A stretch of 64,000 nucleotides of DNA, from contig CM026422.1 of NCBI GenBank assembly GCA_014871385.1, positions 24,660,987-24,724,986 of the forward strand. The letters are read 5' to 3'. Under the pieces are notes generated by a model. It saw nothing but the letters and a program-made list of their open reading frames with translations. It was not told the origin of the DNA and ran no database searches. This DNA comes from Ceratodon purpureus. Taxonomy: Eukaryota; Streptophyta; Bryopsida; Pseudoditrichales; Ditrichaceae. How positions within the stretch are numbered: position 1 is the first letter of the stretch; each line of letters opens with the position of its first letter. Made by a program: the position numbers and the translations under genes. Positions 4,787-62,799 of the stretch are shown here, in pieces.

Positions 4787-4790
4787 TTAA

Positions 4791-5625
4791 CCCCTAAAGG
4801 ACGAAGCAACCACTTTTGGATTGCGCCTGAAATTGAAAACCCCGTAAAATCCCCTAGAAGGGTCAGATTTGAGTGTTTTTTGTTCCTAACCTCTTTAGAA
4901 TCAAGTTGGCAATAAGAATATTCTAAAAGTTTGGTGAAAAAGTGAAACCCTGATTTTAGAAAAAAGAAAGAACATGAATCGGTCCTATGTTTCTACAGTG
5001 AAGTTAGTGTTTCTACAGTGAAGTTAGTGTTTCTACAGTGAAAATGTTTCAACCAAACTTTGAGCACATTGAAAAGTGAAATGAAGATCTCTCCTTGAGG
5101 ATTTATTTTTTTAGCATTTTTTCTTTTGGAAATGCTTGTATGACCACTCTTTTATGGCTTCACCGTTTTGGATTTATCAAAAACCCTTTTGAATTTTGCA
5201 AAAAGTGCCATGTTGAAAAAAAAATAATTCAGAGTGACACTTATGTCAAACCCATTTTCTCCAAATTGGTAACTCGAAAAAATCTTTAAAAAATTGTGCA
5301 TGTTCTTAACATACTAGAGAAGAGAATTAGTTTTAGTTGCCAAGTTTTTATAAATTTTTGAATTAGCAATTTTTAGTCAAACTCGGAAACTCACTGTTAG
5401 TATTTCACAAATTCACTAATCTTCCAAACTTCAGATATTATTATCTTTGGATGCGTTGCTTTTCCAAACCCAAAATTTGGTACAGATTTTGGTAGCCCAC
5501 TACTTTCAAAGATCTTACGATTAAATTGCTTATGGTGATTCTCAAATTTGTCTCACTTTGGAAGATGCAAGAATGGCACTATAGGTACTGAAAAACTATG
5601 GAAATACCCCTTCGTCCTTTAGGGG
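4791..5625. mobile_element. Non-autonomous piggyBac element A (835 bp)
   Basis: TTAA (4787-4790 and 5626-5629) flanks an element whose ends are perfect 16-bp inverted repeats, CCCCTAAAGGACGAAG. TTAA target duplications are diagnostic of piggyBac. No transposase frame is present. The motif AATCGTAAGATCTT (reverse complement of 5509-5522) lies 103 bp inside the right end. Element C has AACCGTAGGATCTT 111 bp inside its left end, and D has it 101 bp inside. A second block at about 5428-5460 also matches D. So A belongs to the same family and is inserted in the opposite orientation. Confidence 0.85.
4987..5045. repeat. 20-bp tandem repeat, nearly three copies
   Basis: GTTTCTACAGTGAAGTTAGT is repeated almost exactly inside non-autonomous piggyBac element A. 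It is perfect over two copies, with a partial third. Confidence 0.85.
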
Positions 5626-5629
5626 TTAA

Positions 5630-8600
5630 CTATGGTGCTACTGTAATCTATAGACATCTGCAATGAAATGAACTAAAGACGTAAATTGGACGCTGGTCAA
5701 TAAAACCTTGCATTGCCATTGGTCAAGATGACACCCATTCAAATGCGTTTGAAATACTTTTCAGAAACCCATCGTTGATAACAATTAAATCTATGTCTGT
5801 GTATATTCACTTTCATAGTGGCAAAATGGAAGCTAGTGCAAATAGTTTTAGGCTCTGATCAGTGAGTTGCTGTGCCCGCTCTCTTTGTGTTCATAGTGTT
5901 CATGGTACACTCTTTTCGGCTAACAGTGCCACTTACACAAATTGACATAAAAGGATCTTAACATTTTACGCAAAATAACTTGTAGCTATAATTTCTGTTC
6001 CTTTGTGAAGGTTTTTCCACATGAATAGTACCAATATCTTCATTCTTTGTAAAATTATTCATTTTATATCAAAGATTACAACCTTGAGAGTAAATACTAT
6101 GGATGGTAAGTCTACAGTATTACCCGAAAACAGTGTAGTAATTACGTATGCAGTGAAGTTGCCCCTTCACATTGTCCTGATCTCTGTTTCTGTTTACTTT
6201 TGTGACCCTTGCTCTGCATGTCTGCAACTTACATTGACATGTTTCTAAGCTAATCTCTTCTCCAAATCCCCAGTAGTTACTGGCCACATGAATCAGTCAC
6301 ATGTTATCCAAATTTTAATGCAGTCCATAACATATTACAACACCAGGGTGACAAATCTTTGTCTCATGGGACCATGGTACATCATGTCTGCTGAAAGTGT
6401 CTTGTGATAGTCATATTCAACCAGCCAACATTGTACAGTATCTATGAAGCTCAAATCAAGTCACCATGTTCTACACTCTCCAAGAGTCAACTTCAACCAA
6501 GTGCCTCAAAACTTATTTGTACAACTTGGATCTCAAACTTAGTTGCTAACTGCTGGGCTCATGAAATAACACAATTATCTCTATTCATCCCCACAAAAAC
6601 TAAAATAACTCTCCACTGCAGCGGACTGCAGAGGTTAAAACAAAAATAATCATCAAAAATACAAAAATCAAAAGAAAAACTACAGTTAATCATTTCAGAA
6701 ATGAAGGAGGCCAGGTAAATCTCAACCGAATTCTGTGTCTGGATGCTTGGAGCTGATTGATTCAATGTGGAGAATTGTCAGTCTGATCAGGGAGTTAATT
6801 GCGGGAATGAACATGTGGGGATGAAGTTCAAAGGATGGGGGTGGCAGAGTAAGTTAAGTTATTAATATAAAATGTGCCCCTTGAGTAAGAAAATCAAGGC
6901 CACTGTAAATGGAGCCACTGGGAGCTTGCTGAATGCCATGACTTTCTGTCTGTTTGCGCGCAGGCTCATGACTCTGGCACCGGTTTTTCAAGTTTCAAGG
7001 GGACCTCGGGCCTCGGGTCCTGTTCCCAGGACTCTACCTGCTCTAGGCTGCATGTAGTCAAGGCAAGTCCACCGCAAGACCACCGCAAGGCACCCTTTTG
7101 AAACGCCTTGCGCCATAGCTAAGCTAGTTGCATTCATCAGCTCAATGCGAGCTCATTTTACCATCTTCACCAATATCATGTTCCCCAGCGTGATGTTTTT
7201 GAACTCATTTCATCAGCTGTGAGCTCATTTTCCCTCCCAGTTCGCACACTGTTTGCAGGTACCACTTGACACCATTTTTCTCTATGTAGGCGTTTTGTTT
7301 GTACAAGTAGTGTTCGTGTAGTGATTTCATTGTTGCTGCATCAGCGCCTGTGAGCTCATTGTTCTTCCACCCCATTTTCTCAACACCGGCGTCTTTTTTG
7401 TACCATGTTCTGTGTGAAACGCTCACTTAACGAGTTCTATGTCATTAGTGAGCCTCATTTTTCCTCCAGTTTGATGCTACCATTACCCCACTTTCTGTAC
7501 TACGTTGAATTTTTCGGCCTAGTGATAGCAGTGTTTGGGGACTTTTTTTTTATCTTGCAGGTTGTCCTCGCTACTGAATTTGGTTAAAGTAATGTCTCCA
7601 AGCTGCATTAGAGGGAGTTTCTGATGGGTAACGCCAACACACACGAGGAGAAAATTATTCTGCTGCGATTAACCCAGGTATGAGTTGCTTGTATGTCGAG
7701 TCTCTTTTGTTTTCAGTTGTTGATGTAGCTCCTGAATGCTTGGGTGGTGATTCGACGTGAGCTGTATTTATGCTTGTGTGAGTCCGTGAGCGAGGTTCAA
7801 GAGGCGTACTGCGAGCTTCTTTTTTGGACATTAGTTTCTGTTTCTACTGTGTCCTTCAGTGTCTATTACGCTGCTCAGGCTGTTTTTTGGTGCACCCAAT
7901 TGAGAACACATACAGCGAGGTGTAGTGATGAGATTGAGCTGTTCATGTGATAATGAGGATATGCCTCAGTCCTCGCATTTAGACGATTCTCTAACATTGC
8001 AGCAAGTGGTTGTCCTTTGTCTTCATTGCAACAAATGGCTCTACTTTTGTTCTAGGCCTCCCTGTCTGTCACTTGGTGCGAGTTCTTGGCAGTGGTCATG
8101 GCAATCTGGAACTAGACCATTGACTCCTTTTTCGCAATATGTTAGCCTTATGTTCACGGCGCGACATGGAGAGCTTCACATACTGAGAATGCAGCTCCTC
8201 GAGCGTAGTGTTTTCGCTGTCTTTAACGGCTTCACATGTTTTATCCTCAATGTACTCTGCTAATCCTTGAGTGGAAATGCTCGCACTAATTAAGAATAAG
8301 CACTTTGGCGAGGAAGGAACAAGTCATTCTGAACATGTAGGGTACTACCATTGCTGTTAGACTTCTACACCTTCAGCAGTCGCTTCCATGCCTCTTGTTT
8401 TAGGGGTTTTCGTCTGTCTGAACATTTTCGATTGATGTACCTGTCTTTTGTTGTAGATGTCAGCTAACATCCGAAAAATGTTTTCTGACACGAGTTGCTG
8501 ATATTGCTGTTTCAATCGTTTTTTGCGCAGACAAGTTTTCATTAACAGGATTGTGCTCATGAAGACATTATCATATTCAGACTGTAGATGTCAAAAGAGG

Positions 8601-8746
8601 GGGGCGATTAGAATTGAATCAGACTGTGGGCTAAAATGTGTTTAATGACCATGTGGCTGATTGCCACTGTAAATGGTGCTACGACAACTCTCTGATTGTT
8701 GAGGAGTGATGCTGTAATTTGAAGGGTTACCTATCCAGCTGAAAGC
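5630..8746. other. Intergenic DNA, possibly with 5' leader exons of the downstream gene
   Basis: No gene was established. At 7624 a short ATG frame (MGNANTHEEKII...) runs 18 codons to a good donor, CCAG|GTATGAG, at about 7677. The sequence before 8747 has a plausible acceptor (CTATCCAG at about 8733). A spliced 5' leader joining the two would put this upstream ATG out of frame with the main start, so it would act as an upstream ORF. This is inference only. Confidence 0.3.
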
Positions 8747-11700
8747 ATGGGGAACCCAACCACTGCTTGTACGGTTCAAGTGCCAATGACCCTATCTAAG
8801 AGAAGGCATAGACAATCTCTCTCACTTCAGCTTGAACAAGTTGGACAGCTAGGAAGCATTAATACTTGTGAGAAGAAAAAATCGGCCAGCTTGGAGAGCA
8901 GCCCCAGGGTCACCGAGGAGAAGTCTATTGCATCTTTTCTTAGCGGTAAGCAAGTTCCAAGTAGGAAACCATCGTCTCTCAGTGGTAGCGAAGATTATGT
9001 CGAAGGAACAGACCTTGCAAGGGGGATTTCCACCACGGAAGACAAAAAGACCACAAGCTTCAATCCGTTTCGAGGTTTGTGCTGTCATGGCTTTTCTTTA
9101 CTGGATTAAAGATTTGTCGAATCATCAGTTGATGTCAGGTAGATGATTCTTTTCTGCTCATAAATTCTTATAATGTAACTGCAATACCATATCTGAAGTA
9201 TGCTCGATGTTGAACATTGCCATTCAGGACACAGGAGGGCTGGTTCTGGAAGCATTATCTCATCTTGCAAATCTCTGGAGTCGACACCACGGGGGAAAGG
9301 AGGAAGTCTATCATTCAGGAAGGAAGCTGGAGGAAGTTCGTCGTTTAGGAAGGAAGGAGGAGGAAGTTTGTCGTTCAGGAAAGAAGGAGGGGGTTCATCG
9401 TTTAGGAAGGAAGGAGGGGGTTCATCGTTTAGGAAGGAAGGAGGGGGTTCATTCAGGAAGGAAGCAGGAGGTCCATCGTTCAGGAGGGAAGGAGGGGGCT
9501 CATCGTTTAGGACGGAAGGAGGTGGCTCATCATTCAGGAAGGAAGGAGGAGGGTCATCGTTCAGGAAGGATGGAGGGGGTTCATCGTTCAGGAAGGACAA
9601 GTCTGCAATTGCAAAGATTGCAGCGTCGCTTTTCCACTCCCCCACGAAGCTTGAGCGCTCTATGTCAATGTCAAGGTTGGCTCAGAAAGCCATACCTGAA
9701 GAAGTGGTCTCCTTGCGACAAAAATTTCAACGGTCGTCAGATGATATATTTCCTCAAACAACAGAGTTGGGTGGAGACAAGGAGAGCGGTTCTGATACTT
9801 TGGTTAAGGATATGGAAGGTACCAGGATATTTACTACTTGCTTTGCTTCCACTGCTAGCCATTCAGATATGAGAGTTTGCGGAATGCAGGTCATCTTGAT
9901 TTGATTTCCATCAGCGTAGAATGATAACGTACGCAGGAATAAAAACCCCACAAGAGCGGGAACAGTACCACATTACGAAGAGCGTAATCCGTAGATTGCC
10001 TTTTAGCACCAAGTATATTTTTCGTTTAGTATTTATCTGCTAACAAATGTGCATTTTGTCTTGAAGCAGTTATATCCATACTGCCAGAATTTTGCTAATT
10101 TTTTGAGGTGTTCTGTTTTCATTGTCCTCGCAGAGTCCAGTGCTCGCCCGATGATCTCCAATACATCATTACAGCAACACGAGAGTGTTATTGGAATCAA
10201 AAACAGGTTAAATGGTCAGGGAGAAGCAGAGTTCTTTTCAACCACTGCAATTAATGATTCTCAGCCATTCTCGGGAGATGCTTCAGGATTACCTTCTGTC
10301 GGTTCTGAAGTGTTCGTAAATGCAGCTGAAAGAGTATCGAGTAACTTGTCCGAGGCATCCCTCATTGGAACTTCAAATGACGATCTATTGCACTCGGATT
10401 ACAATCCGTACGGTTGGACGAAAAACTTCTCTCTATCTAATGTGACACGAACATCGGCCCTTCCATCCTCAAGTGAAAAGTATTGTTCTCCCCTTGCATT
10501 ATCAGAATGCAACTCTGAATCGAGTACAGAAGCAAGTCCTAAAGAGCCACCTTCCATAGGGTCACAGAGCTCACGTTTAGCGTGGGTCGATGAAGATCAG
10601 CCATGTACTTTCCTAGAGACAAGCATCCTATCATCAACAGGGGGTCATTCACTGGGATCCTTCCACTCCGAGACAGAAAAAATTAGTCTGCCAATTGAAG
10701 CTGATATTTCTGAAGAAAATCTTGAGAAGGGAATCGCAGCGGACGATCTTCGATCCCTTCTATTCGTCACCGAGAAAGTGACAGAGGAAGAACTAACAGA
10801 AGCTGCAGTATTGTCTAGCCTTATGAGTGAGGAATATCTCACAAGTCCTGTGTTTATGTTATCAGAAAAATCTCAACAAAATCTTCTGACCTCACCTTTG
10901 GAAAAACATACCCCAATATTCTCGCCAAGTACAAGAAGTGAAACTGGTTTGACGAGGAGTCCCTGCAATTCTGATGCTTGTCTCAAAAAATGCATGAGCT
11001 TCGAGCCTGTAGCACGAGACAAGTCCAAAGCTGAAAGTGACCGGAAGGCTGCAAAGCTTCGTAAGAGACGACGAAGTGTGTCGGCTTCAGGAATTGGGGC
11101 CATGCTGCTCAAAGTTGTGAGGGTCTCAGATTCAGGACCAATTATCACGAGAAGATTGCCGAAAGTTGGACCTGAAGTGATTTCTGGGGCGGACGCATTA
11201 CGAGCCAGAGAATATGTACTTCAGAAAACAGCACAAATATCTATGGGACGAGCTTCCGAGTCATCCTCGCCAGCTTCTTCTAGACTTGCTGCTTGCCAAT
11301 GCGAATCAGAGAATGCGGTATGAGCCATTTCTCTCTAGTTGATTTTCTCTGGATTGATGGTTTTCTATTCATTTTTCCTTCAACGTTCATTTGAAATTAT
11401 TTTACCTTCCTTTTGTTCTAGATGTTTTCAAGGAGCCTTTTACCATAACACGATCAAAAACTGAGGATGATTTGTTCTTCTCCTGTATTTGCTATGAATG
11501 ATCGATTAGGTCAAATTAACACACCCCAAGTTTGTAGACGCTGAGAATGGACCTGAAGACGATTGTGTTGAGCTTGTTCAACATTCCAAAGAGGCTCGTG
11601 AAGGTGTTGATGGCACAGGTGGGTATTATATAGTGTTGGTAAATAGCTGAAGAATAGAATCAAGGGACAGGGGGTTTGTGAACTCATAAGAATACCATTT

Positions 11701-28525: not shown

Positions 28526-29361
28526 CCCCTAAAGTTGAAAAGCCTTCAAATTGCCAAAAACCTTCAAAACTAGACTCTTTCAATATAAGGTGTAAGTTTT
28601 TAAGCTTTGATGTATTTTAAGAGGAAATAATTGTAGGATCTGGTACCTTACTTGTACATGTATATGTACCTCTTATCTTAAATTGAAACTCCTTACCGTT
28701 TGTGAGATCATAATGTTCTAAGTTGGAAAAAAAGGTTTTTTTTCCCTTATTGCAAAATGAGTTTGAAGTGTTTTGTGAGCCAAAAAAACCAATTTTAAAA
28801 ACAAATTCGATGTGAAGCTTGTCAAATTCTCTTAGATGGGTTAAGAATATGTCCATGCACTTTTTTCCCTCATACAACCTATAAAACCTAAAGAAATGCT
28901 TGATTTTTCACATGGATGTATGCTGAAGTTCAAATACAAAGCTCGGTCTATGATAGTAAAAAAGGCATATAGAGAAATATTGGATTGAAAATCCGAGTGG
29001 TGAGATCATGTCTTCAAATTTTATTTATATGTAAAAAAACAAAAATTGAAACAAAAAAAAATCTCAATTTTTGGTGAATTTTTGAAGTTTCTGTGATCTA
29101 ATCAATTTTGAGCAAATTTTGAGCATATACTGGAGTTTTGGGCAGATTTCAGTATGCCCCAATAGTGTTTTCAAACTTTGACTCCGGATATCTCCTAAAG
29201 TATGAGGAATGTTGAAGCATGAATGATCTTGTTAGAAAGATATGATAATTATCTACATTGGGCCAAAATTACAGCTTCATCCTACAAAAATTGACTTATG
29301 GCGAGCCTTAGGCTTGCGGACCCTAAATCATACCATTTTTGTTGAGTTGATGCTTTAGGGG
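28526..29361. mobile_element. Non-autonomous piggyBac element B (836 bp)
   Basis: TTAA at 28522-28525 and 29362-29365 flanks an element beginning and ending with the 9-bp inverted repeat CCCCTAAAG. No transposase is present. About 105 bp inside the left end is TTGTAGGATCTGG, matching the AACCGTAGGATCTT block of elements C and D. At offset 172 lies GTTTGTGAGATCATAATGTT (28698-28717), nearly identical to 47621-47640 in C. So B is related to C and D and was probably mobilised in trans. Confidence 0.8.
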
Positions 29362-37160: not shown

Positions 37161-37318
37161 AGAGAATTCTCTTCTGGTGAGGTCTTGGTTCGGAACTCTT
37201 GATCAAAAGTGCGATAAACAGAGTTCTCTTGGTCCATTTCCACGTCACCCAGACCCCGCGGTACGCAGTACACGCTGGACGTGCGGTGATGACCTGGACG
37301 ACAACGTGGAATATACGG

Positions 37319-37598
37319 TATAGGTTGAAGACCGGCGGTTTAGATTCAGGACCGGTGGTTTAGGTTGAGGACCTGCGCTTTAGATTGAGGACCGGCGGTT
37401 TAGGATGAGGGCCGGCGGTTTAGGTTGAGGATCGAAGGTTTATGTTGAGGACCGGAGTTTTACGTTGAGGACCTGCAATTTAGATTGAGGACTGGCGATT
37501 TAGGTTGAGGACCGGAGGTTTATGTTGAGGACCGGAGGTTTACGTTGAGGACCTGCGGTTTAGATTGAGGACCAGCGGTTTAGGTTGAGGACCGGAAC
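37319..37598. repeat. 20-bp minisatellite, 14 copies, with 80-bp higher order
   Basis: Fourteen 20-bp units with consensus TTTAGGTTGAGGACCGGCGG run head to tail. Units 6-9 (37419-37498) and 10-13 (37499-37578) match each other in the order of their variants (TTTAGG, TTTATG, TTTACG, TTTAGA), so the array grew partly by duplicating a four-unit block. Confidence 0.9.
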
Positions 37599-47436: not shown

Positions 47437-47794
47437 TTAACCCCTAAAAATCCAGCCGTTTTTGGAAGCTCCAAGTTCCAAAACTGTCATTTTTGACCGC
47501 TTTGTGGGAATGACGGTTTGGACCAGTTTTTTTTCCTATTTCTAGACATCCAACCGTAGGATCTTGTAATTCACCCTCATTAGAAGAACTGCTGAAATTT
47601 TCAACCGTTGGATGTTTACCATTTGTGAGATTATAATGTTCAAAGTTGCAGCAAAAGTTTTTTTTGGTGTTGCCCGAACGGCATAGGGTAAATGGTAAAA
47701 ATGAGGACTTGATGTTCTATATTCCAAACTTTTTGCTCATATTTTTTTCCATGTAGGAAACTAGGTTGGGCACATCCATGCAAAATTTTGTGTA

Positions 47795-47921
47795 GCGTGA
47801 GCCCCCCGCAGGGGGGGGCTCACGCGATGGGAGCCACCCCGAGGCGTAGGGATAGGGCGAAGCCCGACCCGAGCCGTAGGGAGTGGCTCCCATCGCGTGA
47901 GCCCCCCCTGCGGGGGCTCAC
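47795..47921. repeat. Nested GC-rich palindrome (hairpin within hairpin)
   Basis: The arms GCGATGGGAGCCAC and GTGGCTCCCATCGC pair across a loop of about 45 bp. Outside them each arm is itself a hairpin, GTGAGCCCCCC...GGGGGGCTCAC on the left and GTGAGCCCCCC...GGGGGCTCAC on the right. Composition (about 70% GC) contrasts sharply with the AT-rich host. The loop has two GTAGGGA direct copies and a GGGCGAAGCCC mini-hairpin. Confidence 0.8.
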
Positions 47922-47989
47922 CCGGCGTAACCCCCGAGCAAACATTTACTATCGGGCAGGCCTTCCGAACAGCAATCGAGTTACTGTTG

Positions 47990-48200
47990 TGGAAATGCAT
48001 GATTAATACATGTCCTGAGTGCGTCGCGTCAGATCTCGGAGGTCATAGGATTGATTCCCTGCGGGAACACGTGCGACCGGGCTGCCCGCGTGTACAATCT
48101 AAAATTCTCCCCCTGCCCGGGTTTTTGCTCGTGGCGGGCTTTTGGGCGGGGCGGGCATTCCGGGACAGGAGGTACGTGGGGGGAGAATATAAAATCTCAG
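47990..48200 (+). repeat. Possible tRNA-derived SINE-like segment
   Basis: TCGGAGGTCATAGGATTGAT TCC (48029-48052) resembles the 3' half of a tRNA, with GGATTGATTCC close to the B-box GGTTCGANTCC (mismatches in the core). No good A-box or acceptor stem was found, so this is not a working tRNA gene. It could be a SINE head nested in element C next to the palindrome. Confidence 0.25.
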
Positions 48201-49186
48201 CAAAGGGGGTTACGACTTCATCCCATGCTTTTAGGTCCTTCAAAAAAATTCTTTAGCTAGTTTGGGTCTAAAAGTTCACAAATTTCTCCATTTCATATAT
48301 TTCTATATAGCACTCAATTCATGAACTTTCCGTGGGATCCCAACGGTGGAGTTGTTGTGTGACTCAAATGTGTTTTTTGAGAAAAAAAAAAAATCAAAAA
48401 TACTAAAATCTCAATTAGAGCTGAATTTATAGGGGTAAAATGAATAAAATGGCTTCCAAAATGAACCGGGCAAGGAGGAAATCATGGGTTTAGGGAAACC
48501 CAGGGAACCCATGATTTGGAAGTGGTCAGGTGCATTGAAGGAGCTGACACAACATGAATACACATGCCCCGAGTATAGGTGGTCAATTCCATGTTCATAG
48601 GAACATCCAAGCTAAACTTTGCACATGGCAAGCTACAGTTTGGAATAAGCCAAGCTATAAATCGGGAATAAGCCAAGCTGAAATTAGTCTTATGAGCCGT
48701 TGCAGATCAGCTGAGATCTAGATCAATGGAATGGTTCTACAGTTTGGTCATACCCATGCCAGCTGGGTGACTTGGCATTAGTTTCGCCCATCCATGCAAA
48801 TTTGGATGGGGTGCAGTCATCACCCATGCCATCCATGCCATCACCCAGGCCATCCATGCAAATCAATTAGACTCCTCCCTTCATTGAGAGCTTGGGCCCG
48901 CCTATGGCCGCCCCCTGAACCCGTCCCCCCCTTCCCTCCCCCAACCAGAATCACCTGTACAGTCGACAAGGACTAGGAGGTAAGCACAAAGAGTGTTTTT
49001 TTTTTTTTTTTTTCTTAGTTTCTTTCCATACATTTGTACACTAGTGTATGTGTTTCTAAGAATCACATACTTGAACGGGAAAAATGTTTAGGAGAGGTAG
49101 AAATGGTAATAAGTAGGAAAAACGGGAATGTGTAGGAAAAACGGGAATATGTAGAGAGAAATAAAAATGGTATTTGTAAGAACTAC

Positions 49187-51232
49187 TTACCAAAAACTAA
49201 CAATTTCGTGCCCGTTGTTGAGCAATCGCCGTATGCCATCGCTCATAGCACCCATTATCAAGGCACATCCACTTGTCTCGCATTTATGGCAATAATAATG
49301 AATGAAACGAACTTTGCAAACCACACATTTCCGGCGTAACTTACTATAAGATGGGGTACAAATGATAGGTCGCCGGGGTTGTGGTGGAATGTCAGTAGGC
49401 TCGGTGGTTCTCATAGGCCACTCTCGTAACATTGACTCACACAAACCTTTTTTGAATTGGAGGTGAGTCATGGGAGGGATTGGTATTCTACGATGGAGGT
49501 TGTGATGGGCAACACAGTCCAAGTAAATGACATACATATTGACCACAGAAACATCTAAAAGGAAAAAGAATATCCTATGCCACCATTTGTGTGATCGTAC
49601 CTGACAACTATATGAGGCTCGTAGCTGGTCTGCGACGTCAACGCCCCGCATGTGAGTAGTGTACTCCAACAAAACCGGTGAAGTCTGCACTTGCTCACGG
49701 ACAGCGCCATTGCGGCGAGGAACTGTGACAACTCTCTCACAGGGCGCCTGGATAGGGTTGCTATGTGTGGAAATGAGCAGGACAGGTTTCTTGTCCTTCC
49801 ACATGACACAAGAAATTGTCCTGCTCACATGCATCTTCCACACAATTGTGCCCTGAATCACATTCTTGAATCCTGCAAGATTCTTCGAAAATCCTGGAAG
49901 ACCCGCACGGTTTGCCCGAACAGTGCCAGTGGCATAGACACCTCTAGAAAGAAGAGAGGTGAATAAACTTATGCTAGAAAAAAAGTTATCCATAGTCACA
50001 ACATGCCACCTGTTCCAAAGCCCATCAAGTAGTCTAATCACAACATTGTTAGCAAGCCTAGCATCTGCATCTGGATGGAGAGGTGGAGGAACAACATCTT
50101 CCTTTCCACAATAAATCTCAAAACTCCAAACATATTTGGAAACAGAACATGCAAGGCACCAGACTTTCAAGCCCCACTTCTGTGGTTTCTTGGGCATGTA
50201 CTGTCGGATAGGGGAGTAGGTACCCTTGTACCTTATCATCATCTCATCCACTGTTACATGCTTACCAAGATACCATGCAAGCTTGCAACGATCTCGAATA
50301 GCATTGACTAGCCACCGCGTTTGGCCTATCTTGTCATATCCCACATCACCTCTAGAAATACCATCCACATTGGTGAGGTGAAGACACCTCCTCAGTTCCT
50401 GGAATCTCTGCCTTGTACAGATTCTGGAAATAATAGGACAGTGGAACAATTTGTCCTCCATCCAATATGTGTAATAGTTAGGCTGTGGCTTCAAGCCCAT
50501 GTAGAGAGCTAAAGCCATAAAGGCGTGAAGCTCAAGAATGGTCACATTAGTCCAGAACCGACCACCTCTAATGTTTCCATTCTCACCAACTCCACAATTG
50601 GCATAGCGGTTTGTCTCATCAACAATTCTCTGTAGTATCTCCACGGTCCAGAAAAGAGAAAAGAAATACTGGAAAGTAGGCAAAGAGCGGGAATGCCTTG
50701 TAGGACCTCTTGTAGGTCCACTAAATGGATTAGGCTGTGGGTTGTAATCAAAGTTTGTGGTTCCCCAAGTCTCATCCCTAAACTCCCATTTTAGGCCATT
50801 TTGCTCTTGGATTGGCCCCACATGCTCATTGTCTCCATCACTCTCAACTTCACTCTCCATTTCAGGAAATGCCACACTGTCATTTTTGCTTTCTCCACTC
50901 TCAGAATCCGGTAAAATTTGAGTCCCATCATCATTATCTTCCCCACCATGAAAATCAGTATCAGGCATTTGCAAAGCACCCCAAGCAGCAGAGGCAGCAG
51001 CAAACATACCTAGAGCAGCAAAATGGGCTGGAGCAGCAAAATGGCCTGGAGCAGCAAACATATCCTGAGTTTCAGGCTCCTCCCCACCCATGCGGCGTTC
51101 CTCCCTGGCCCCATCCCCATAACCTCCGACCTTTGAATTCTCATGAACTCCTAGCTCTTGGTTTTCTGCGTTCTGCACAGAACTGAAGTAAACAGAGTCA
51201 CTCACATACTGAGCCGTTGCAATCAGCTGCAT
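49187..51232 (-). CDS. piggyBac transposase (element C)
   Basis: From the in-frame ATG at 51232 the protein has 681 residues. An upstream GTG (51268) also keeps the frame open but is not a plausible start, and a spliced first exon, as in element D, is possible. The order is: acidic N-terminus with FAAP/FAAL repeats (about 58-80), then the DDE_Tnp_1_7 core. Candidate catalytic Asp residues are in VTVDEMMIRYKG (D329), HVVTMDNFFSS (D415) and MRGVDVADQLRAS (D532/D535). Conserved surrounding motifs include RQYMPKKPQKWGLKVWCL and RSHKWWHRIFFFLLD. A C-terminal cysteine-rich domain CVVC...HYYCHKC...C starts near residue 636; in piggyBac it binds the terminal repeats. The frame is intact, so it may be active or recently active. 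It cuts at TTAA and reseals without footprint. Confidence 0.9.
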   Translation of the reverse strand: MQLIATAQYVSDSVYFSSVQNAENQELGVHENSKVGGYGDGAREERRMGGEEPETQDMFAAPGHFAAPAHFAALGMFAAASAAWGALQMPDTDFHGGEDNDDGTQILPDSESGESKNDSVAFPEMESEVESDGDNEHVGPIQEQNGLKWEFRDETWGTTNFDYNPQPNPFSGPTRGPTRHSRSLPTFQYFFSLFWTVEILQRIVDETNRYANCGVGENGNIRGGRFWTNVTILELHAFMALALYMGLKPQPNYYTYWMEDKLFHCPIISRICTRQRFQELRRCLHLTNVDGISRGDVGYDKIGQTRWLVNAIRDRCKLAWYLGKHVTVDEMMIRYKGTYSPIRQYMPKKPQKWGLKVWCLACSVSKYVWSFEIYCGKEDVVPPPLHPDADARLANNVVIRLLDGLWNRWHVVTMDNFFSSISLFTSLLSRGVYATGTVRANRAGLPGFSKNLAGFKNVIQGTIVWKMHVSRTISCVMWKDKKPVLLISTHSNPIQAPCERVVTVPRRNGAVREQVQTSPVLLEYTTHMRGVDVADQLRASYSCQVRSHKWWHRIFFFLLDVSVVNMYVIYLDCVAHHNLHRRIPIPPMTHLQFKKGLCESMLREWPMRTTEPTDIPPQPRRPIICTPSYSKLRRKCVVCKVRFIHYYCHKCETSGCALIMGAMSDGIRRLLNNGHEIVSFW

Positions 51233-51323
51233 GCAATGGCCTCGCCTCTCCAAGCTGAAATTAGTCACTCACATACTGATCAGTTTCACTCAGCTGCATG
51301 CAATGGCCTCGCCCCTCTAAGCT
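51200..51323. repeat. Direct duplication of about 57 bp at the transposase 5' end
   Basis: CAGCTGCATGCAATGGCCTC followed by GCC is present twice, about 68 bp apart (51225 and 51294 regions), with ACTCACATACTGA preceding each. The duplication covers the presumed start of the element C transposase and makes the true start hard to choose. Confidence 0.7.
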
Positions 51324-51920
51324 CTCCTGTTCAGAAACTCAAAAATCCCTCACTCATGTCGTTGCCCTCCCTGTTGCTCATTCTAATGACTACTACAGAC
51401 TCTGATTGATTTTGCAAAGGGAGTGCATGCTTTCCATCTCTGTAGAACTACTTTCACAACTTGACTGTTTGAAATTTCGAACCATGAATGTGTAGCACCC
51501 TTGAATTTTAGAACGTTTGATTACTGTGTAATTAGAGTAACGGAATTTGTAATTAGGAGGTACTTGGCCTACTACTGTCATGGGATTGTCAAGAATCATG
51601 GGTTAGTGCTAAACCCCTCCCTAAACCCCCTGCCCCTCCTCAATCTCCCCACATGACCGCCCACGCTGCCCACTGTGGGCCTCTTCCTCTCATTGGTTTA
51701 CACCATAGCCCGTTCTGCCCGTTTTGGATCCAAAATCAAAAATAAATTCTACAGACCACAGAAAATGGAATTTAGGGTTGAAATTTTTACCACACCTAGT
51801 TCATCCAATTTTCCACTCTCACTAAAAATTTTGACTTCAAATTCGCATTTTTACCCACTAAACAAAGATGCCCAAAACAGCAAAAACCCATTTCGGCTTT
51901 CCTGGATTTTTAGGGGTTAA

Positions 51921-52259
51921 CAACTCCGATGGCTGTGGAGTGTCGAGGTCCTCTCGTTTCCGCTTCATTGAAGTTTCAGAGCAGACATTCCTCTCAGATA
52001 GCATTGTGCCAGGGGTGAATTGACAAACAATGGTTTTGCTAAAGCCCTCCAATGGATCATTTACGTTAGTTGATATTCCGCAGGACTGAAATGATAATTT
52101 TCCTGCGAGCATACTCCCTTGTGAAACATTATCCGGCACTGAAAAACTGTTGTCGGAAATACTTAATAATCGCTCAATGTTATCCCACTCACACTTGTCA
52201 GACGCAATATCTCCCTTTGGAGTTTCTCTCTCCATCTGTGCGGATGTGTCCTCTTCGGC
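51921..52259 (-). pseudogene. 5' half of the acidic-protein gene split by element C
   Basis: From ATG 52262 (MAEEDTSAQMERETPKGDIA) the minus-strand frame runs through DKCEWDNIERLLSISDNSFS and MKRKREDLDTPQPSEL up to the TTAA target at 51917-51920. It then reads into element C and stops at 51858. It is Ser/Glu-rich with a basic KRKR patch. The 3' half lies at 47133-47436. The gene is disrupted as it stands; whether the element could be spliced out with cryptic sites in its ends is unknown. No family was recognised. Confidence 0.55.
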
Positions 52260-52274
52260 CATGGAAACAAACAA

Positions 52275-54780
52275 CTCAAAGTTTGTTTAAGTAGCGCAAA
52301 ACAACAAATCTCAATAAATCGTCACCAGCCTACGACATAGTAATTCTCACATCGACAAGAAATGCAGAAAGAATGTTAGGACCACAGGGTTTTTCTATCC
52401 TCAGATCTGCATGCATAGTAAATGAAAAGAGTCATTTAAAGTAATAGTTACACTACTAAAGGTTCTTATTAACGTTCACCTAATTGAAATTAAAGTCTCT
52501 GTGTGTGCATGTGACAGAGTTTCTCTGGAATTAGAACCTTCTAGCATATATATTATCAACTATCACACATTGTCTGTATGAGTAGGTGTTTACTTTATTT
52601 CTTTTTGAGATGTAAACATGTCATCACGTAATTGAAATAACTTGTGAACACAATTAATAGAAACAATTAATCAAAGTATTCTCTGTATGTGTAAATTACA
52701 ATAGAATAGCGTATAACACAATGCTTTGGGAAGTAAATTTCAGAATTCACCATCCAGTGCAAAAATTCTATTCTTTCACCTTGTTTCAAAATGTATATAA
52801 TTAAAAAACAAATACTAAATATCCATGTATTTTCATGAAAATGTATTTGCTACTATTCTCTCTCATATTTTGAATAGTACATTATTCAACTAATCATGTT
52901 TACGATGAAATAAAATATTTTAGGAGCAATTTAAAATAAAGACATTAATGTTTAGGATTAAGAGATTAATATATTTGAAGCTACACACATTGAAAGTGCT
53001 CGTATTCTTATGAAGGTGTTCAGTATAACCCAACACATGTATTATAATTTGTGTGATATGTCCAATCATCATGTGCTATAACATATTTTAAATTGCCAAC
53101 ACTAATCATCAATTGTCATCCTTTAGTATAAAAAATGAATATTTATTTTGTAATTTACTAGTGAATTTCGTTAACATACTTACTTACTTCGACGCCGTTG
53201 TTCCATTTCTCCAGAAACTAACTTCTCTCCTGTACTCGTCAACTGACTCCTTCCCCAATCAAAACCAACCCCACCCCCCATCCACTTTCATCCAAACCCA
53301 CACATTCCCCCACGCTGAATTTTTATTTTCTCCATCAATTTCTATTTATATATATGTATTTTTATATATACAAATACATATATTATAACATAGTACATTG
53401 GTCGTTCATGTGGAACCAACTTCAATAGGAGTGTTCGCTATTTAGAGTTTTGTTTGTCATCCACAAATTCCTACAAATAATTGTGGTTCAAATATTGAAT
53501 TACAAAGTTTTATGGTATAAATTGACAATTAGTGATTAGAATTTGTTAAACTGAGAATTAAAGAAAATATATGATTCTACCAACGTACATTAGACACGGT
53601 CACAAAAAATTAGAGTTCAGTGGTATTTCTAAAAGAGGTTGTTTCCCAAACTACAAAACATGTAAGTACAAAACATATAACTTGCAATCGCAAACCAACT
53701 AATTTTACTAACATAGTTTTATACAAATATTCAAACACTACATAAGCTTCAATACTATTAAAGTCGCAACACACTGTATGTTGACGAAGGTTCATATGAG
53801 ACTTATGATATTGAACTTCGTAAACCTTAAATATCTGCACGTTTAGTCCGTAATAAATTCTAACGTTGTTTTTAAAATAACTATATATCTTAAAAACTAA
53901 TGTACTTAGGTATTACTTAACTGTTTTAGACGTTGTAAGATTCTAAATTAAAGACATTAAGATTTACTATGGATTAAGTCAGGATGTATGAGCATCATTG
54001 TTCTTACATAACCATAAGTTAAATAAAAGAGTAAAGAACTATCAGAAAAAAATGATAGAGTGAATTATATAGGAAGAGGCAATTTTAAAGTATGTTATAA
54101 TTCCTTAAATTAATACCATGCAGTATTTACAGTTGAGTGTGTTAAAATTAACTTCAATATATATAACTCCCATGACTGCTTCCATTATAAATGATTCACA
54201 TGGGCACTTCTTTTATGCGGGATATTAGCATACTCACAGAAGATTAAAAGTCTGAGTATGGTTGTTGTGGTCGAATTTGTGGTAAGAAGTTTAATACCGA
54301 TTGCATCAATTTGGGATTTTTTTCGTACTATATGGCTTCCAGTACAACCTATATTTTATATTAAAAATTTTAAACATGATATACATGCACGGGAGGCATT
54401 GTCTCTTTTGACACGCATGAGTATTAAGAACACCAAAAGAAGGTATAATTAAGGTTCCCTCGTTCAGTCTAAATGTTTATAAAGTCATAAGTATCTGAGC
54501 TGCTAGTATACTACTGTTAATAGTGAGGACAGTGTTTTAATCCAAATGTCTCAATGTATGCATTAAGATTTTATAGGAAGAAAAGAAAAAAACAACCTAA
54601 GTTAATATCCGCTATATTCTGTTTTTCCCATACTTAGAGACGGCACTTCCAAAAAAATAAAAAAATAATTGAAACAGGGGTCAACGTTAAACTTGGAACT
54701 CCACCACATGTGGCTAGATTCGGTCGCCACAAAGATCCTATCCGCGGTAGGTGTAAGCTTTATTAATTAGACAAGCCATC
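52275..54780. other. AT-rich intergenic DNA
   Basis: No supported gene. Open frames are short and A/T-driven. Confidence 0.5.
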
Positions 54781-54782
54781 CT

Positions 54783-55556: not shown

Positions 55557-55692
55557 AATACACCAATAATTGCAATAAAGTATTATACCAATAATTGCAA
55601 TAAAGTAATATACTAATAGCATATACATCAACTGCAATAAAGTAATACACTAATAGCATATACATCAACTGCAATAAAGTAATACACCAATA
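55557..55692. repeat. Tandem repeats (25-bp and 37-bp units)
   Basis: Two copies of a 25-bp unit (ACCAATAATTGCAATAAAGT) are followed by two copies of a 37-bp unit sharing the GCAATAAAGTAATA part (ACTAATAGCATATACATCAA). Confidence 0.8.
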
Positions 55693-55694
55693 AA

Positions 55695-56997: not shown

Positions 56998-57589
56998 TTA
57001 ACCCCTAATCGGCCATCATCAAATTTCATCAAAATTGTCCAAAATCTGTCATTTCTAATGCAACTGAAATTGATTAAAGGAAATTAGCAATTTCCAAACT
57101 TTAACCGTAGGATCTTAGAGTAAACCTCTTCAAGAAGTTTCTATAATTTTTTTAGCAATTTTGACCGCACGGATGTGAAGATTATAGCATTTAAACTTTG
57201 AAGAAAAACTTTTTTTGATATTACCCAAGGAGATTACCTTTGTTTGACTACTTGAAAACTGAAATTTTCCCACTACAGAAGTTGGGGGTTTTTGATATTT
57301 AGGAAGATAACCTTTATAGGAACATGTATACCAAATTTGAAACATAGAAAATGAATATAAAATGTCAAAAACAAGCATGCAAAGAAAGTAGGGTACAAGG
57401 CCCTCGAAATGAATGTTCTTGGTTGGAAATTCATTGCCGCCATAATTTTTAAATTTTAGGCAATCCAAACGGTGAAAGTATTAGTCTTCACATGAACTCT
57501 TGCAATATAAAAAAAAAAACATAAAAATATATCAATAGTACAAAGAGATGTGCAAATTCAGGTAAATCAGAATGTTTTGAAGGTTGGGC

Positions 57590-58010
57590 AGTGGATACAG
57601 GCCTGGGAGGCCAATTCCCAGGCGTGTCCACTGGCCCTTGCCCTGGCCCCGTCATCCCAGCCCTCATAAGCCCCCCCTCCCCGCCCACCCCTCTTCCCCC
57701 ACTCAAGACCCCCTCGCATCCCGATCCCGGCCTCTGTGCCTCCCTGTCCCTGGGCACGGTGGCCCATTCCCCGCGCTGCCCCTGATGCCCACCCCGCCCC
57801 GTCCCTGACGTCCGCCCCGCCTTCTCCCGATGCTCCATCCGCCCTTCAGGCCCGGCCCGCCACTGAGCTCCGCCCCGCCTGTGATGCCCGCCCTGCGTCA
57901 GAGGCTGCCTTCCTGGCTCAGCCCACCTCGCCCTCGCTCCCAGGGGCTTCAGGCTCCATATGCATGGCCCCTGCCCTACCCCTTGCACCTCTCCCTCGTC
58001 CCTATCTTCC
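57590..58010. other. GC-rich island inside element D
   Basis: A C-rich (plus strand) stretch, far above the local GC level, with repeated CCCGCCC and CCCTGCC words. The 166-codon frame across it on the minus strand is composition-driven and not a gene. It resembles in composition the Gly-rich coding patch at 60430-61060, and may be a duplicated or captured piece. Confidence 0.5.
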
Positions 58011-58495
58011 CTCCCCCATCAGTGACTGTATTTTTTGACATTTGAAATTTTTGACATTGTAGTATTTTCAAAACTTTTTATGTTATATTTTATTTCCTCA
58101 ATTCCCTTCTGCCTATAATTATAATTTCAGTTTCTAATAAGACCAAAGTCATTATAACGTCCACCAAAATTGACATATAATGTATTTGAAAACTTTATTT
58201 CACCAATGAAATCTTGTGATTAGAAATTTTGAAACAAATAAAGATTCCAGTAAAAAAATTGTAAGCCAAACTTTGTTTACAAGTCGACGGAAAAAAAGAA
58301 GTCCATTGATATGGAAGGAAGATGGGAAGATTCGAACAAAGATAAAAAAAAAATGTACCGCCAATATGTAGTAATGAAATTTATTTCCTATTCTTACTTT
58401 TACTAAATATGATTTTGAATGGATAAAGCATAACAATATTATACCTAAAGAATGAAGGATATAAAACACCAAATCAATGATCATAATTACTCATA

Positions 58496-61400
58496 TTAGG
58501 TAAAAACAAAATTATAGGTTTTCATAAAACTTACATATTGTAGGCCTTGTCGGCGAAGGCCCTCGTGATATATTTCAAAACACGAGTTCGGTCCTTTGAA
58601 ACACATAAACTTATTTTCACAAGAAGGGCAATAGTAATGCGGTCTTTTACCATTATGGTCCTTGGACTTATTGCATACCACACAAGGATTTCTCCTTGTG
58701 GAATGTACGGGGTAGCAATATCCCCGTCCCCCCCGTGGAGAACATAAGTCATCTTCTTCCCGTATTCTCCACCTATGTAATAATGCCTCACATAAATCGG
58801 TTCTAAATTGGAGATGACTCATTGGCTTGCGAACCGGTGTTGAATTTTTGCATTTGTCAATATATATCAAAAACATATTCACCACGGTCATATCAAGTAA
58901 GAAAAAAAATACTCGATGCCACCATTTATGTGACCGATTTTGAGTACAATAGGATGCTCGGAGTTGGTCGGCGACGTCTACTCCACGCATATGCGTTGTA
59001 TATTCCAAATGCATCGGCGATGTTGGAATATCCTCTCTAATGGCTCCATTCCGACGTGGCACTGTTTGCACAATCAATCCGGGAGTGGTGGTTGGTTGTG
59101 CATGAGTCGATAAAAGTAAAACCGGTTTCTTATCTTTCCATACAACGGAAGCCATAGACCTTGACTCGTGCATCCTCCAGTCCATCCAACCTTGCACTTC
59201 TTTCCTGTACACCTTTGTATTTCTCAACACAAGAGGCACACCAATTCGATTCGATCGCATTGTCCCCGTTGCATAAATTGACTTCGAAAGTAATTCTCTA
59301 AATAATCCAACACTTGTAAAGAAATTGTCCATGGCAATGACATGGCCCTTTCCCTCAATTGCACTTGCCAAATCCAAGACAACATTGTGCGCTAATTTAG
59401 GTTCTCCTCTAGCCACCCGTTGCTCATCCCGTACTACTTGACTTTTGCCACAATAAATAGAGAAGTTCCATACATATTTTGTTTTGGAACATGCCAAGCA
59501 CCAAACTTTTATGCCCCATTTCTGCGGTTTCTGAGGCATGTATTGTCTCAAAGGACAATACGAACCTTTGTACCGTATCATCATTTCATCAATCGTACAA
59601 AACTTCCCTAAATTCCACAACTTCTTACAATTCTCTTGCATGCTTTCTATCAACCATCTAATTTGCCCCAACTTATCATATCCTGGTAAATCTCTCTCAC
59701 GTACATATGTAGCTGGATTGGTGATGTGTAGACATTTTGTGAGGCTCTTGAACCGTGTCCGGGACATAATTTTTGAAATGGTTGAACAATGATAAATTGA
59801 ACCTCTTGTATGCCAATAAGATTCGATGTGTGGTTGGCGCTTCATACCCATATACAACCATATGGCCATAAACGCCTTCAATTCTGGCACAGTAAATTCA
59901 ACCCACCCTGTACCCCCCATCGTATTTCCGTCGTTGTCCACCGCCGTCGCATAACGATTTGTTTCCCGAACAATGTCCCTCAAAATGTAATGTGTCCAGA
60001 AAATCTCAAATAATTGCATCATAGTAGGTAATGACCTCCAAAATATATTTGACATCAAAACACCAATAAATTCCTGAGGCTTCGGATCATAAGTGAAATG
60101 CGTCTTCTTCCATGATGAATCTCGAAACACATATTTTATGTCGTTTGAAATTTCCACATCTCCTCCCTCATTTTCCTCTTCACTCAAAAAATCATCACTT
60201 CCATAATCCTCACTGTCGCTCTCCAAAGTAGGTGGTGCATAATCATCAAACCTCTCTCTTCTCCTTGAAAACTGAATACTTGTACGCCCACCATGAATTC
60301 CAAATTCTGCTTGATGATTTCTAACATTGCCTCTACCATGCTGTAATCCCTCGTTCATAAACTGCTGTGGTCCATAAGCCTCTCCATCAAATTCAATGGG
60401 GACTGTGTCATTGACCCCATTCCCCCTAAAACCCCTCAACCCATCCCCAGCAAATTCTGATGGCCCTCCAATCCCGTCCACAAATTCTGAGGGCCCCGCT
60501 CCTTGAGGGGTCCAGCCTGGACCATGGGATGGCATGGCTCCTGCATGACTTGGCGGAACCCCATACAGCTGGGCACCATGCGGTCCCAGGCTGTATGGAG
60601 CCGTTGGGGCGCCACTTTCCCCGCCCACCCCAATAGCTCCCCATTCCCCATCCACCCCAATCCCTCCCCCTGCCCCGCCGAGCGCATCCTCTGATCTCTC
60701 CCCACCCAGCCCAACCCCCCCGTCATCCCAATCACCCAGTCCCCACCCCGCTCCCCTCACAGTGTTCCCTCGCTCCCCGACCCCATCCCGCCCGCCCTCA
60801 GACTCACTCCCTGTTCGCTCCAAACGCTCCCCGCTCCCTCCCGGTCCTCCAGCGCTCCCTGTCCAGGGCTCCCCCGCTCCTTCACCGCTCCCCGACGACC
60901 CTCCCCCCATGCCCGCCCACTGTGCATGCCCGCTCCCCGCCCTGATCGCATGCAGCGACTCATCACCTCCCTCTCCCGCAAACCTCCTGTCCGACTCATG
61001 CCGCACTTCTTCCTGCAGACCTCCTTCCCCGCCTTCTCCCGATGCCTCTCGTCTCTGAATGCGATGGTTGTGTCTTCTTCTCTTCTTGAACTTTGCATTG
61101 AACTTCTTGACGTTGTAGTTAGATTCTTCAGGCCACCATAGGTCCTCCAAACTTCTGTCTTCCTGAAAACCATAGTCTCCTTCATCGAAGCTGTCTTCAC
61201 TGTGGTGTTCACATGAACTATCCCTCCCATCCTTTCCAGAGCTCTCTTGACTGTCAGAGAGGTTAGAGTTTGATTTACCAATTCGTGCTTGTAATAAAGC
61301 ATATATATCTCCTTCAACATCTACAGGTTGTGTGGGAAGAGGTGAGGGAGGTTCTGGAGGTTGGATTGGAGTAGGAGGTGGAGGTGAAGGTAATGAGGGA

Positions 61401-61613
61401 GGATGGAAGTCCGAACTTCCTGATGCTTGATTCGATTGTAACCGTAAGCTGCGTCGAGGAGCTTCCAAAAAGCTTTCCTACAGATATCAACAGAAACAAG
61501 TGTAAGTATGTAGCAATCTGAAATGGTAAGAGTGGTTTCAATCTCATAAGAAAACATGTCAATGCATCACTTACCTCCTTCCCCCTCCATGACCTTGCTC
61601 CCCGTCGTGGCAT
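58496..61613 (-). CDS. piggyBac transposase (element D), two exons
   Basis: Exon 1 is 61575-61613 (MPRRGARSWRGKE) with donor GTAAGTGATG. Exon 2 is 58496-61477 after acceptor ATATCTGTAG, in phase 0, giving about 1006 residues. The large exon has no ATG near its start (its first start-like codon is TTG at 61468), which supports the intron. The N-terminus is Pro- then Gly-rich and disordered (about residues 30-410). The DDE_Tnp_1_7 core follows, with CTIDEMMIRYKG (D643), HVIAMDNFFTS (D730) and MRGVDVADQLRAS (D847/D850). The C-terminal cysteine-rich domain reads CVVC...H...HYYCPSC...C...C....H (about 945-984). It shares long motifs with the element C protein but differs throughout, so the two are separate lineages. 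Intact and possibly active. Confidence 0.92.
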
Positions 61614-62799
61614 CTTAGAATAATACAGGTTGCTAGAGGTTATGACGACTTGAGCTTGAAGTATTGGAGAAGAACTTTCAGATCTAAACTTATAGGTTCT
61701 TCTATCAGACTTTGAAGTAGTCAGGCAGTGAAGTTTTCGGCAGAATTCTATGTGACAGATCCAGTCTTACTTAGTGGCTTGGAATCTGAATGACATTGGA
61801 TGCTTGGAATTCCACCTCACTTGCTCTGACAATGTAATTACTGGAAGCCTTCATCTTTCATGTGTTGTCCTAGTCAAAGTCGCCTCACATGTCAGTGCCT
61901 TCTAGAGAGTTGGTAGTTACTGATTTGTTTGGCCCTGTTTTGTTAGATGCATCTGTACATTGCTCATTTACAGCATGGTCGATACATATCGTCCATTTCG
62001 ATTTATTTTTCATGCTCTTTGTCTGCAGGCTGAGAAGAAGTTTGAGCCATCGAATCATTGATCAGGTGCATTTATTTTTTTCTTCTGTGCTGCTGGATTT
62101 TGTATTAGCATACCTCTGAGCCGTAGCCCAATCTTAACTGATTTCAAAACAAATTATAAAACACACAGACATAGTCTGTGTGCACATTCACTCCGACTGT
62201 GTCTGCAGACACAGTCCCGGCATCCTTCACCGCACATGAAGTGGAGGCCCTGGCCCGGCCCACAAGACCCTGGTCCATGACCGCCGGGCTTGCGGTGCCT
62301 CCTTCCCGTCCTGCCCCATTCAGCCGCTCCGCCCCTTCACAGCCCGACCCGGTCCAGTTGGGACTTTTCCCCTGCCCTCGCCCAGGGCCCTCGCACCCTT
62401 GCCCTTCCTCCCTGATCTGCTATTTCCAAGTCCCCCCTCTTCCCCCTGCGACTTCCCCTTGAGATGGAGTCTTCCCGCCCCCCCCCCCCCAAAATTCCCT
62501 GTATCCACATCTGACCGACTTGATCTGGCCCTGACCTTCATGAAAAAGTCAAACTACCTCCTTCGTTCTCATTGGAGGTTCAGACTGCCCCTGCTGCCCC
62601 TAGAGTAGCATTTTGGGTTCAAACAGCCATAACTTTCCGCCCCTTCATCTAAAAAAAAATTTAAAAATACCCCCAGAAAGCTCTCAAAAAGTACTTTTTG
62701 GAAAAAAAAAATAAAAAAATTCAAGTATTTTTGGCTTCGTGGGACCCTGCCCAAATTTCAAAAACGCCCATTCCAGGACAATGGCCGTTTAGGGGTTAA

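What the first reader, a model, noticed from the sequence alone, without database searches (positions are those of the whole stretch)
4787..62799. Four piggyBac insertions of one family in a land-plant window
Seen: four elements (4791-5625, 28526-29361, 47441-51916, 57002-62795), each with TTAA on both sides and termini starting CCCCTAA. Two carry full transposases with three conserved Asp motifs and a cysteine-rich tail; two are about 835 bp without a gene. Known: TTAA duplication and this domain set define piggyBac, which is rarely reported from flowering plants. Inference: an active or recently active family in this lineage, with internal-deletion derivatives.
Basis: partly seen in the sequence, partly recalled or inferred. 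Interest (0 to 1): 0.85.

Follow-up and report, generated by a model that had tools for sequence, protein, structure and literature searches.

The report
piggyBac transposons thriving in a moss
Four jumping-gene copies of the animal-famous piggyBac type sit in what is most likely a moss genome, and they and their relatives share an unusual, rigidly spaced pair of DNA signals near one end that probably serves as a docking site for the enzyme that moves them.

Summary
Both large ones encode transposases matching DDE_Tnp_1_7 (3.2e-75, 5.8e-82) with all four active-site Asp. The host is not a flowering plant: 362 Mb with one 110.5-Mb chromosome fits the moss Ceratodon purpureus (inferred). The genome holds at least 116 transposase places and at least 40 places for each short element. 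Copies up to 99% alike lose homology at or near TTAA, so the group moved fairly recently. 'One family' is half right: the two transposases are about 50% identical, yet all four elements share an end plan not in the finding. On the end 3' of the gene only, ACCGTARGATCT lies about 103 or 113 bp from the tip and an AGATTATA block exactly 75 bp further: 30 of 30 elements in 14 clusters plus one more, including 20 of 20 picked before looking; the spacer is little conserved. I read this as a one-sided recognition signal of an asymmetric transpososome; binding is not shown. Element 57002-62795 has an open, apparently spliced gene; 47441-51916 has a frameshifted zinc tail.

The parts
4791..5625 (.). 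m1: 835-bp non-autonomous piggyBac element (TSD TTAA 4787-4790 and 5626-5629); its signal-bearing end is the RIGHT end
5510..5521 (-). m1 block 1 (ATCGTAAGATCT), 105 bp from the right tip
5427..5446 (-). m1 block 2 (AGATAATAATATCTGAAGTT), 180 bp from the right tip, 75 bp from block 1
28526..29361 (.). m2: 836-bp non-autonomous piggyBac element (TSD TTAA both sides); signal-bearing end is the LEFT end
28630..28641 (+). m2 block 1 (ATTGTAGGATCT), 105 bp from tip
28705..28724 (+). m2 block 2 (6 mismatches to the model sequence), 180 bp from tip; lies in a 50-bp stretch shared at 86% with element 47441
47441..51916 (-). A47: 4476-bp piggyBac element with transposase (TSD TTAA both sides); signal end LEFT (3' of the gene)
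49187..51268 (-). A47 transposase ORF (693 aa stop to stop); DDE_Tnp_1_7; zinc tail frameshifted after CVVC..HYYCHKC
47553..47564 (+). A47 block 1 ACCGTAGGATCT, 113 bp from tip; a one-mismatch copy of its first 10 bases starts 51 bp further (47604)
47628..47647 (+). A47 block 2 (5 mismatches to the model sequence), 188 bp from tip
57002..62795 (-). A57: 5794-bp piggyBac element with an open transposase gene (TSD TTAA both sides); signal end LEFT (3' of the gene)
61575..61613 (-). A57 putative exon 1 (MPRRGARSWRGKE), followed by a GTAAGT...GTAG intron 61574-61478 (inferred from conservation in relatives, no RNA seen)
58496..61477 (-). A57 exon 2: 993 aa, DDE_Tnp_1_7 at residues 487-867, cysteine tail CVVC..HYYCPSC..FMC..CFEIYH
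57104..57115 (+). A57 block 1 ACCGTAGGATCT, 103 bp from tip
57179..57198 (+). A57 block 2 AGATTATAGCATTTAAACTT, 178 bp from tip

Best explanation
These are four insertions of piggyBac-superfamily cut-and-paste transposons in a moss (most likely Ceratodon purpureus). They belong to one large, old, still fairly recently moving clade whose members share an asymmetric end architecture. The transposase (DDE/D core plus C-terminal zinc tail) recognises short CCCCTAA tips and inserts into TTAA (anatomy shown; chemistry inferred from the superfamily). At one end only, the end 3' of the gene, two sequence blocks separated by exactly 75 bp form a subterminal recognition signal. I infer that transposase zinc tails, or a host protein, bind both blocks on one rigid stretch of DNA and so fix which end is which in an asymmetric transpososome. 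The 835-bp elements are non-autonomous copies that keep this signal and are moved in trans by relatives' transposase (inferred).
For: Superfamily: Pfam and PDB matches; the four Asp of T. ni piggyBac and piggyBat are kept in 20 of 20 moss sequences aligned. Mobility: 30 m1 copies read (the window's own among them) have TTAA on both sides in 20 and at most one mismatch per side in 29; an intact relative on C10 with TTAA and matching tips; five pairs of copies at different sites (95.1-99.0% alike) lose homology at the signal-end TTAA: exactly in 2, 1 bp outside in 2, 9 bp outside in 1. Signal: block spacing 75 in 30 of 30 elements, which fall into 14 clusters at 65% identity; mean pairwise identity of the 14 representatives is 0.91 in block 1, 0.71 in block 2, 0.40-0.46 in the spacer, 0.51 just after block 2, 0.35-0.38 in the other stretches. 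Prospective test: 19 of 20 new places, the 20th recovered once its tip was fetched. Shuffled ends reach block 1 with at most 2 mismatches in 11 of 3300 trials. Opposite ends: 5 of 5 read lack both blocks. dN/dS is 0.04-0.59 over 12 pairs of relatives, so the genes have mostly been kept by selection.
Against: No binding or transposition was measured. The blocks could serve transcription or RNA processing, since they lie 3' of the gene. In aged m1 copies the blocks vary (block 1 has 0-4 mismatches). Block 2 is loose (up to 6 of 20 mismatches, reached in 36 of 3300 shuffles). The genome-wide count of tip plus block did not complete. The 20 test places were picked by profile range, not at random. 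A57's nearest scored relative (C13, 90%) has two stops in its gene and a lost right tip. The clade-outside control is weak (tips recognised in 2 of 10).
Confidence: 0.75

Rival explanations
1. The blocks are transcription or RNA signals of the element (an antisense or outward promoter with a TATA-like block 2, or a 3' processing signal of the transposase mRNA), not recognition sites.
For: They lie only 3' of the gene; block 2 holds TTATA, and a T run and TGCCC follow near 210-225 bp in most elements.
Against: Both gene-less elements keep them at the same place, although inheritance from a deleted parent would also give that. Rfam finds nothing in the window at gathering cut-offs.
Confidence: 0.2
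2. The blocks are shared only by common descent, with no present function.
For: The 8 bearers that are in the protein tree fall in one supported 14-row clade (98/99; the ends of the other 6 rows were not read for that tree).
Against: Between bearers of different clusters synonymous divergence is large (L010/L018 dS 2.2; A57/A47 beyond correction), yet block 1 stays 91% identical and the spacing never changes in 30 of 30, while among m1 copies only about 5% diverged it has already changed in 2 of 30.
Confidence: 0.1
3. m1 and m2 are TTAA elements unrelated to piggyBac that merely resemble it.
For: They share almost no sequence with the large elements: one 50-bp match, m2 with A47.
Against: Same tips, same TTAA, both blocks with 75-bp spacing; that 50-bp match scores 65 against a shuffled maximum of 24 and lies at the same distance from the tip.
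Confidence: 0.03

Closest known systems
Trichoplusia ni piggyBac (PDB 6x67, 6x68)
   Same: DDE/D core with the same four Asp, TTAA target, C-rich tips (recalled), unequal ends; best solved match of A57 (E 1.2e-28)
   Different: Its motifs are identical 19-bp palindromes on both ends, arranged asymmetrically, with minimal ends LE35/RE63 (passages of PMC11707139). Here two blocks lie 101-208 bp in, at one end only, at fixed 75-bp spacing. A57's protein is about 1006 aa with a long low-complexity N-terminal part and a putative intron.
piggyBat (Myotis lucifugus, PDB 9c0f)
   Same: Best solved match of A47 (E 2.9e-26); left end richer in motifs than right end, LE153 sufficient (PMC11707139 passages)
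   Different: The piggyBat motifs named there (GCGGGA repeats, an imperfect palindrome three times on the left end) do not look like ACCGTARGATCT or AGATTATA; compared by eye only.
PiggyBac entries in plants (Ceratopteris repeat table in PMC6890710; one-line statements in PMC8086355, PMC10813416, PMC4438587; passages only)
   Same: Same superfamily, plants
   Different: The passages seen give counts or a one-line mention; they describe no element, end or moss.

Membership tests
piggyBac superfamily | DDE_Tnp_1_7 (PF13843) transposase | tested here: met
   E 3.2e-75 and 5.8e-82, far over cut-off
piggyBac superfamily | catalytic Asp residues equivalent to those of T. ni piggyBac | tested here: met
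   four aligned Asp in A47, A57 and 18 relatives, as in the two solved outgroups
piggyBac superfamily | TTAA target duplication | tested here: met
   4 of 4 window elements; m1 copies 20 of 30 exact, 29 of 30 with at most one mismatch per side
piggyBac superfamily | short inverted repeats with C-rich tips (CCC/CCY rule recalled) | tested here: met
   8 of 8 window tips begin CCCCTAA
piggyBac superfamily | C-terminal cysteine-rich zinc domain | tested here: met
   C..C, C..C, C, C...H pattern in A57 and most relatives, judged by eye; not met in A47, frameshifted; no Pfam zinc family reaches its cut-off
piggyBac superfamily | seamless excision | not testable with these tools
   needs an excision assay or two accessions
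piggyBac as in T. ni (same subterminal motif on both ends) | same motif repeated at both ends | tested here: not met
   blocks at one end only; 5 of 5 opposite ends read lack them. The T. ni 19-bp palindrome itself was not searched for.

The most novel reading that the evidence does not exclude
A moss piggyBac clade evolved a one-sided, rigidly spaced two-block end signal. Two main tip distances about one DNA turn apart (103/104 and 113/114) but a never-changing 75-bp inter-block gap imply a helically phased asymmetric transpososome unlike those solved for piggyBac or piggyBat, possibly using a host DNA-binding protein.
Probability: 0.4. Interest if true: 0.65.

Novelty: new variant of a known kind. 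Interest (0 to 1): 0.5.

Why it matters
piggyBac is a main gene-delivery tool, and how its enzyme handles two unequal ends is under active study. A plant clade with many natural variants and a fixed-spacing signal gives a directly testable comparison, and candidate plant-adapted piggyBac systems. It also shows that piggyBac, only briefly mentioned for plants in the papers seen, can be abundant and fairly recently mobile in a land plant.

Tried and rejected
Viral relatives: no match for the A47 transposase in viral contigs. Tip plus block 1 in viral contigs and in prokaryote genome contigs: 0 hits each. The first pair tried for recent copies (C10 5.92 Mb, C3 4.65 Mb) was only 82-93% alike and held no CCCCTAA tips, so it says nothing on recent moves. 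A second copy of the block-1 core in the spacer is clear in the A47 and L095 representatives (1 mismatch, +51) but weak over all 14 (mean 3.6 against 4.2 mismatches in shuffles), so it is not part of the claim. The C9 copy of the C10 element lacks its right end; CCCCTAA tips of another element lie nearby. Outgroup branches in the tree are very long; only the inner clade is used. Rfam: nothing over gathering in the window. I first took A57's gene to lack its start; the conserved splice sites removed that. The first m1 scan did not orient loci and found only 10 of 30 TTAA pairs; one search replaces it.
Full report
OBSERVATION. Script one search confirms the four elements at 4791-5625 (m1), 28526-29361 (m2), 47441-51916 (A47) and 57002-62795 (A57), each with TTAA on both sides and CCCCTAA on both tips. 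TTAACCCCTAA occurs four times in the window and TTAGGGGTTAA four times; these are precisely the eight ends. The inverted repeats are short and differ between elements beyond about 7-8 bp.

SUPERFAMILY. The ORFs 49187-51268 and 58496-61477 (minus strand) match Pfam DDE_Tnp_1_7 with E 3.2e-75 and 5.8e-82 and the solved piggyBac and piggyBat transposases. Four Asp positions shared with T. ni piggyBac and piggyBat are kept in 20 of 20 moss sequences aligned (L004, which is A57 itself, and L005, whose frame is broken, were left out). A57's tail has the full cysteine/histidine pattern; A47's is frameshifted after the second CxxC, with the missing motif visible in another frame. No Pfam zinc family reaches its cut-off on either tail. 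A57 has a putative 13-codon first exon, ATG at 61613, then a GTAAGT...GTAG intron. Of A57 and seven relatives aligned, the acceptor AG is present in 8 of 8 and the donor GT(A/G)AG in the 7 that reach it. The intron is inferred, not seen in RNA.

HOST. The window lies on C2 of an assembly of 362,488,568 bases in 151 contigs. Contigs C1 to C13 are of chromosome size, and C6 is 110,524,308 bp. Passages of PMC8000587 give Ceratodon purpureus a 360 Mb genome with U and V chromosomes over 100 Mb each, about 30% of the genome; a table in PMC13120521 gives 358 Mb for strain R40. That Ceratodon has 13 chromosomes, that R40 is the male and that its V is 110.5 Mb are recalled. So the host is most likely male Ceratodon purpureus, a moss. 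The primary paper was not held, and no gene was used to test the identification.

ABUNDANCE AND MOBILITY. The own-genome search scored 116 places with DDE_Tnp_1_7 out of 998 first-look candidates, all over the cut-off; 0 of 14 control genomes matched. m1 has 40 scored places of 321 candidates, 84-100% alike; m2 has 40 scored places of 2742 candidates, 84-100% alike in their main pieces; both include the window's copy. Thirty m1 copies, the window's among them, were read: TTAA on both sides in 20, at most one mismatch per side in 29; median distance to the majority sequence 0.0475. Two of the thirty, L036 and L039, share flanks and look like a segmental duplicate. A57 has one nearly full-length relative at 90%; the main piece of each other scored relative is at most 85% alike, and two internally deleted relatives are seen at C4:22377987-22380475 and C13:14330806-14331885. 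A relative on C10, about 5.46 kb, has TTAA and matching tips at both ends. Five pairs at different sites lose homology at the signal-end TTAA: L078/L089 and L078/L093 (97%) exactly there, L089/L093 (99.0%) and the C10/C9 pair (95.1%) 1 bp outside, L095/L096 (98.9%) 9 bp outside. Only that end was compared, over 369 to 1053 bp in four pairs and 4.8 kb in the fifth. So the clade moved fairly recently. The m1, m2 and A57 copies of the window have no relative closer than 94%, 88% and 90%; the search with A47 did not complete.

SHARED END SIGNAL. Comparing A47 and m2 showed a 50-bp match at the same distance from the left tip. Aligning ends of relatives showed a common plan on the end 3' of the gene: block 1 ACCGTARGATCT about 103 or 113 bp from the tip, block 2 AGATTATAGCATTTGAAGTT (looser), then in most a T run and TGCCC near 220. 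m1 carries the blocks on its right end. Each block was placed by its own best match in a wide range. Over 30 elements the block 1 to block 2 distance is 75 in 30 of 30; tip to block 1 is 101 (1), 103 (15), 104 (6), 105 (2), 113 (4), 114 (2). They fall in 14 clusters at 65% identity. Mean pairwise identity of the cluster representatives is 0.91 in block 1, 0.71 in block 2, 0.40-0.46 in the spacer, 0.51 in the 30 bp after block 2 and 0.35-0.38 elsewhere.

TEST ON NEW ELEMENTS. I chose 20 further places by profile range (start 3, 4 or 7, end 347, as in the clade), not at random, and fetched 1.2 kb of each 3' side. Nineteen of 20 had tip, block 1 (0-2 mismatches) and block 2 (1-6 mismatches) 75 bp apart; these 19 are among the 30 above. 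L085's stretch also holds a further exact block 1 outside the element. The twentieth, L081, was 99.5% like L078, whose tip would fall outside the stretch; a further 551 bp gave its tip, block 1 at 113 and block 2 at 188 with 6 mismatches. In shuffled ends block 1 with at most 2 mismatches appears in 11 of 3300 trials and block 2 with at most 6 in 36 of 3300. Ten transposase places outside the clade or of other profile range (L001, L002, L003, L006, L008, L014 and L065-L068) show no block 1 with at most one mismatch in the stretches read, but a tip was recognised in only two of these (L006, and C9 at 13.2 Mb), so this control is weak. The opposite ends of five elements lack both blocks. Instead, the seven gene-bearing right ends aligned share GGGCA near 45-50 bp from the tip, most with a TGGG/GGGC and T-run stretch before it (L020 lacks that part); it is not evident in m1 and m2.

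WHY I THINK IT IS FUNCTIONAL. Synonymous divergence between families is large: 0.47 to 2.2 for seven between-family pairs inside the clade, beyond correction for A57/A47. dN/dS is 0.04-0.39 in ten of the twelve pairs with a value; L001/L002 and L013/L017 give 0.44 and 0.59. Among m1 copies only about 5% diverged, the spacing has already changed in 2 of 30 (74 and 76), so an unchanged length over such divergence points to selection on length. Two main tip distances about 10 bp apart suggest helical phase; this is inference.

MECHANISM. Shown: tips, TTAA, catalytic residues, one-sided blocks, fixed spacing. Inferred: the transposase (zinc tails) or a host factor binds both blocks and orders the two unequal ends; the short elements are moved in trans. 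piggyBac and piggyBat also have unequal ends, but with different motifs (passages of PMC11707139).

LITERATURE. In the held library, piggyBac with Ceratodon gives one paper, where the word is 'piggybacking'; piggyBac with mosses and transposase gives five papers, unrelated by title and start of abstract; the passages seen of a Physcomitrium transposon paper name Mariner elements as its expressed DNA transposons. Plant piggyBac is mentioned or counted elsewhere (passages). In these searches I found no description of moss piggyBac ends; most subscription papers are not held and Repbase was not searchable. Binding, transposition and a genome-wide count remain open.

Noticed in passing
genome C6 (110.5 Mb, probable V sex chromosome): Best-scoring copies of m1 and m2 are scarce there: 3 of 40 and 1 of 40 against 12.2 expected each; transposase places 19 of 116 (35.4 expected); A57 relatives not scarce, 11 of 40. 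Only best-scoring copies were counted, so the sample leans towards the autosomal query.
   Followed up: partly
window 51858-52286 and below 47437, minus strand: A47 appears to sit inside a host coding stretch: an open frame of at least 100 codons runs up to the TTAA from the right, and one of about 100 codons follows on the other side in a different frame.
   Followed up: partly
L006; C9:13207600-13210300 (L067): Two relatives have tips CCCTTAAACGTC and no block 1 (up to one mismatch), so at least two end types coexist in this genome.
   Followed up: partly
window element tips: The tip CCCCTAAA contains CCCTAAA, the plant telomere repeat (recalled); probably coincidence, not tested.
   Followed up: no
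window 37316-37596 and 9297-9597: A 20-bp tandem array (14 copies) and a 27-bp array (about 10 copies), the latter coding a Ser-Phe-Arg-Lys repeat in an open frame.
   Followed up: no
L072 5170-6253 (reverse complement of the locus): Two facing CCCCTAA tips about 1.08 kb apart, one resembling the m2 right tip, lie beyond the truncated end of a larger piggyBac element on C9.
   Followed up: no
C10:5922900-5931900 and C3:4646400-4655400 (L069, L070): A diverged DDE_Tnp_1_7 family (955-aa frames) without CCCCTAA tips in the stretch read; homology at 82-93% runs over about 6 kb.
   Followed up: no
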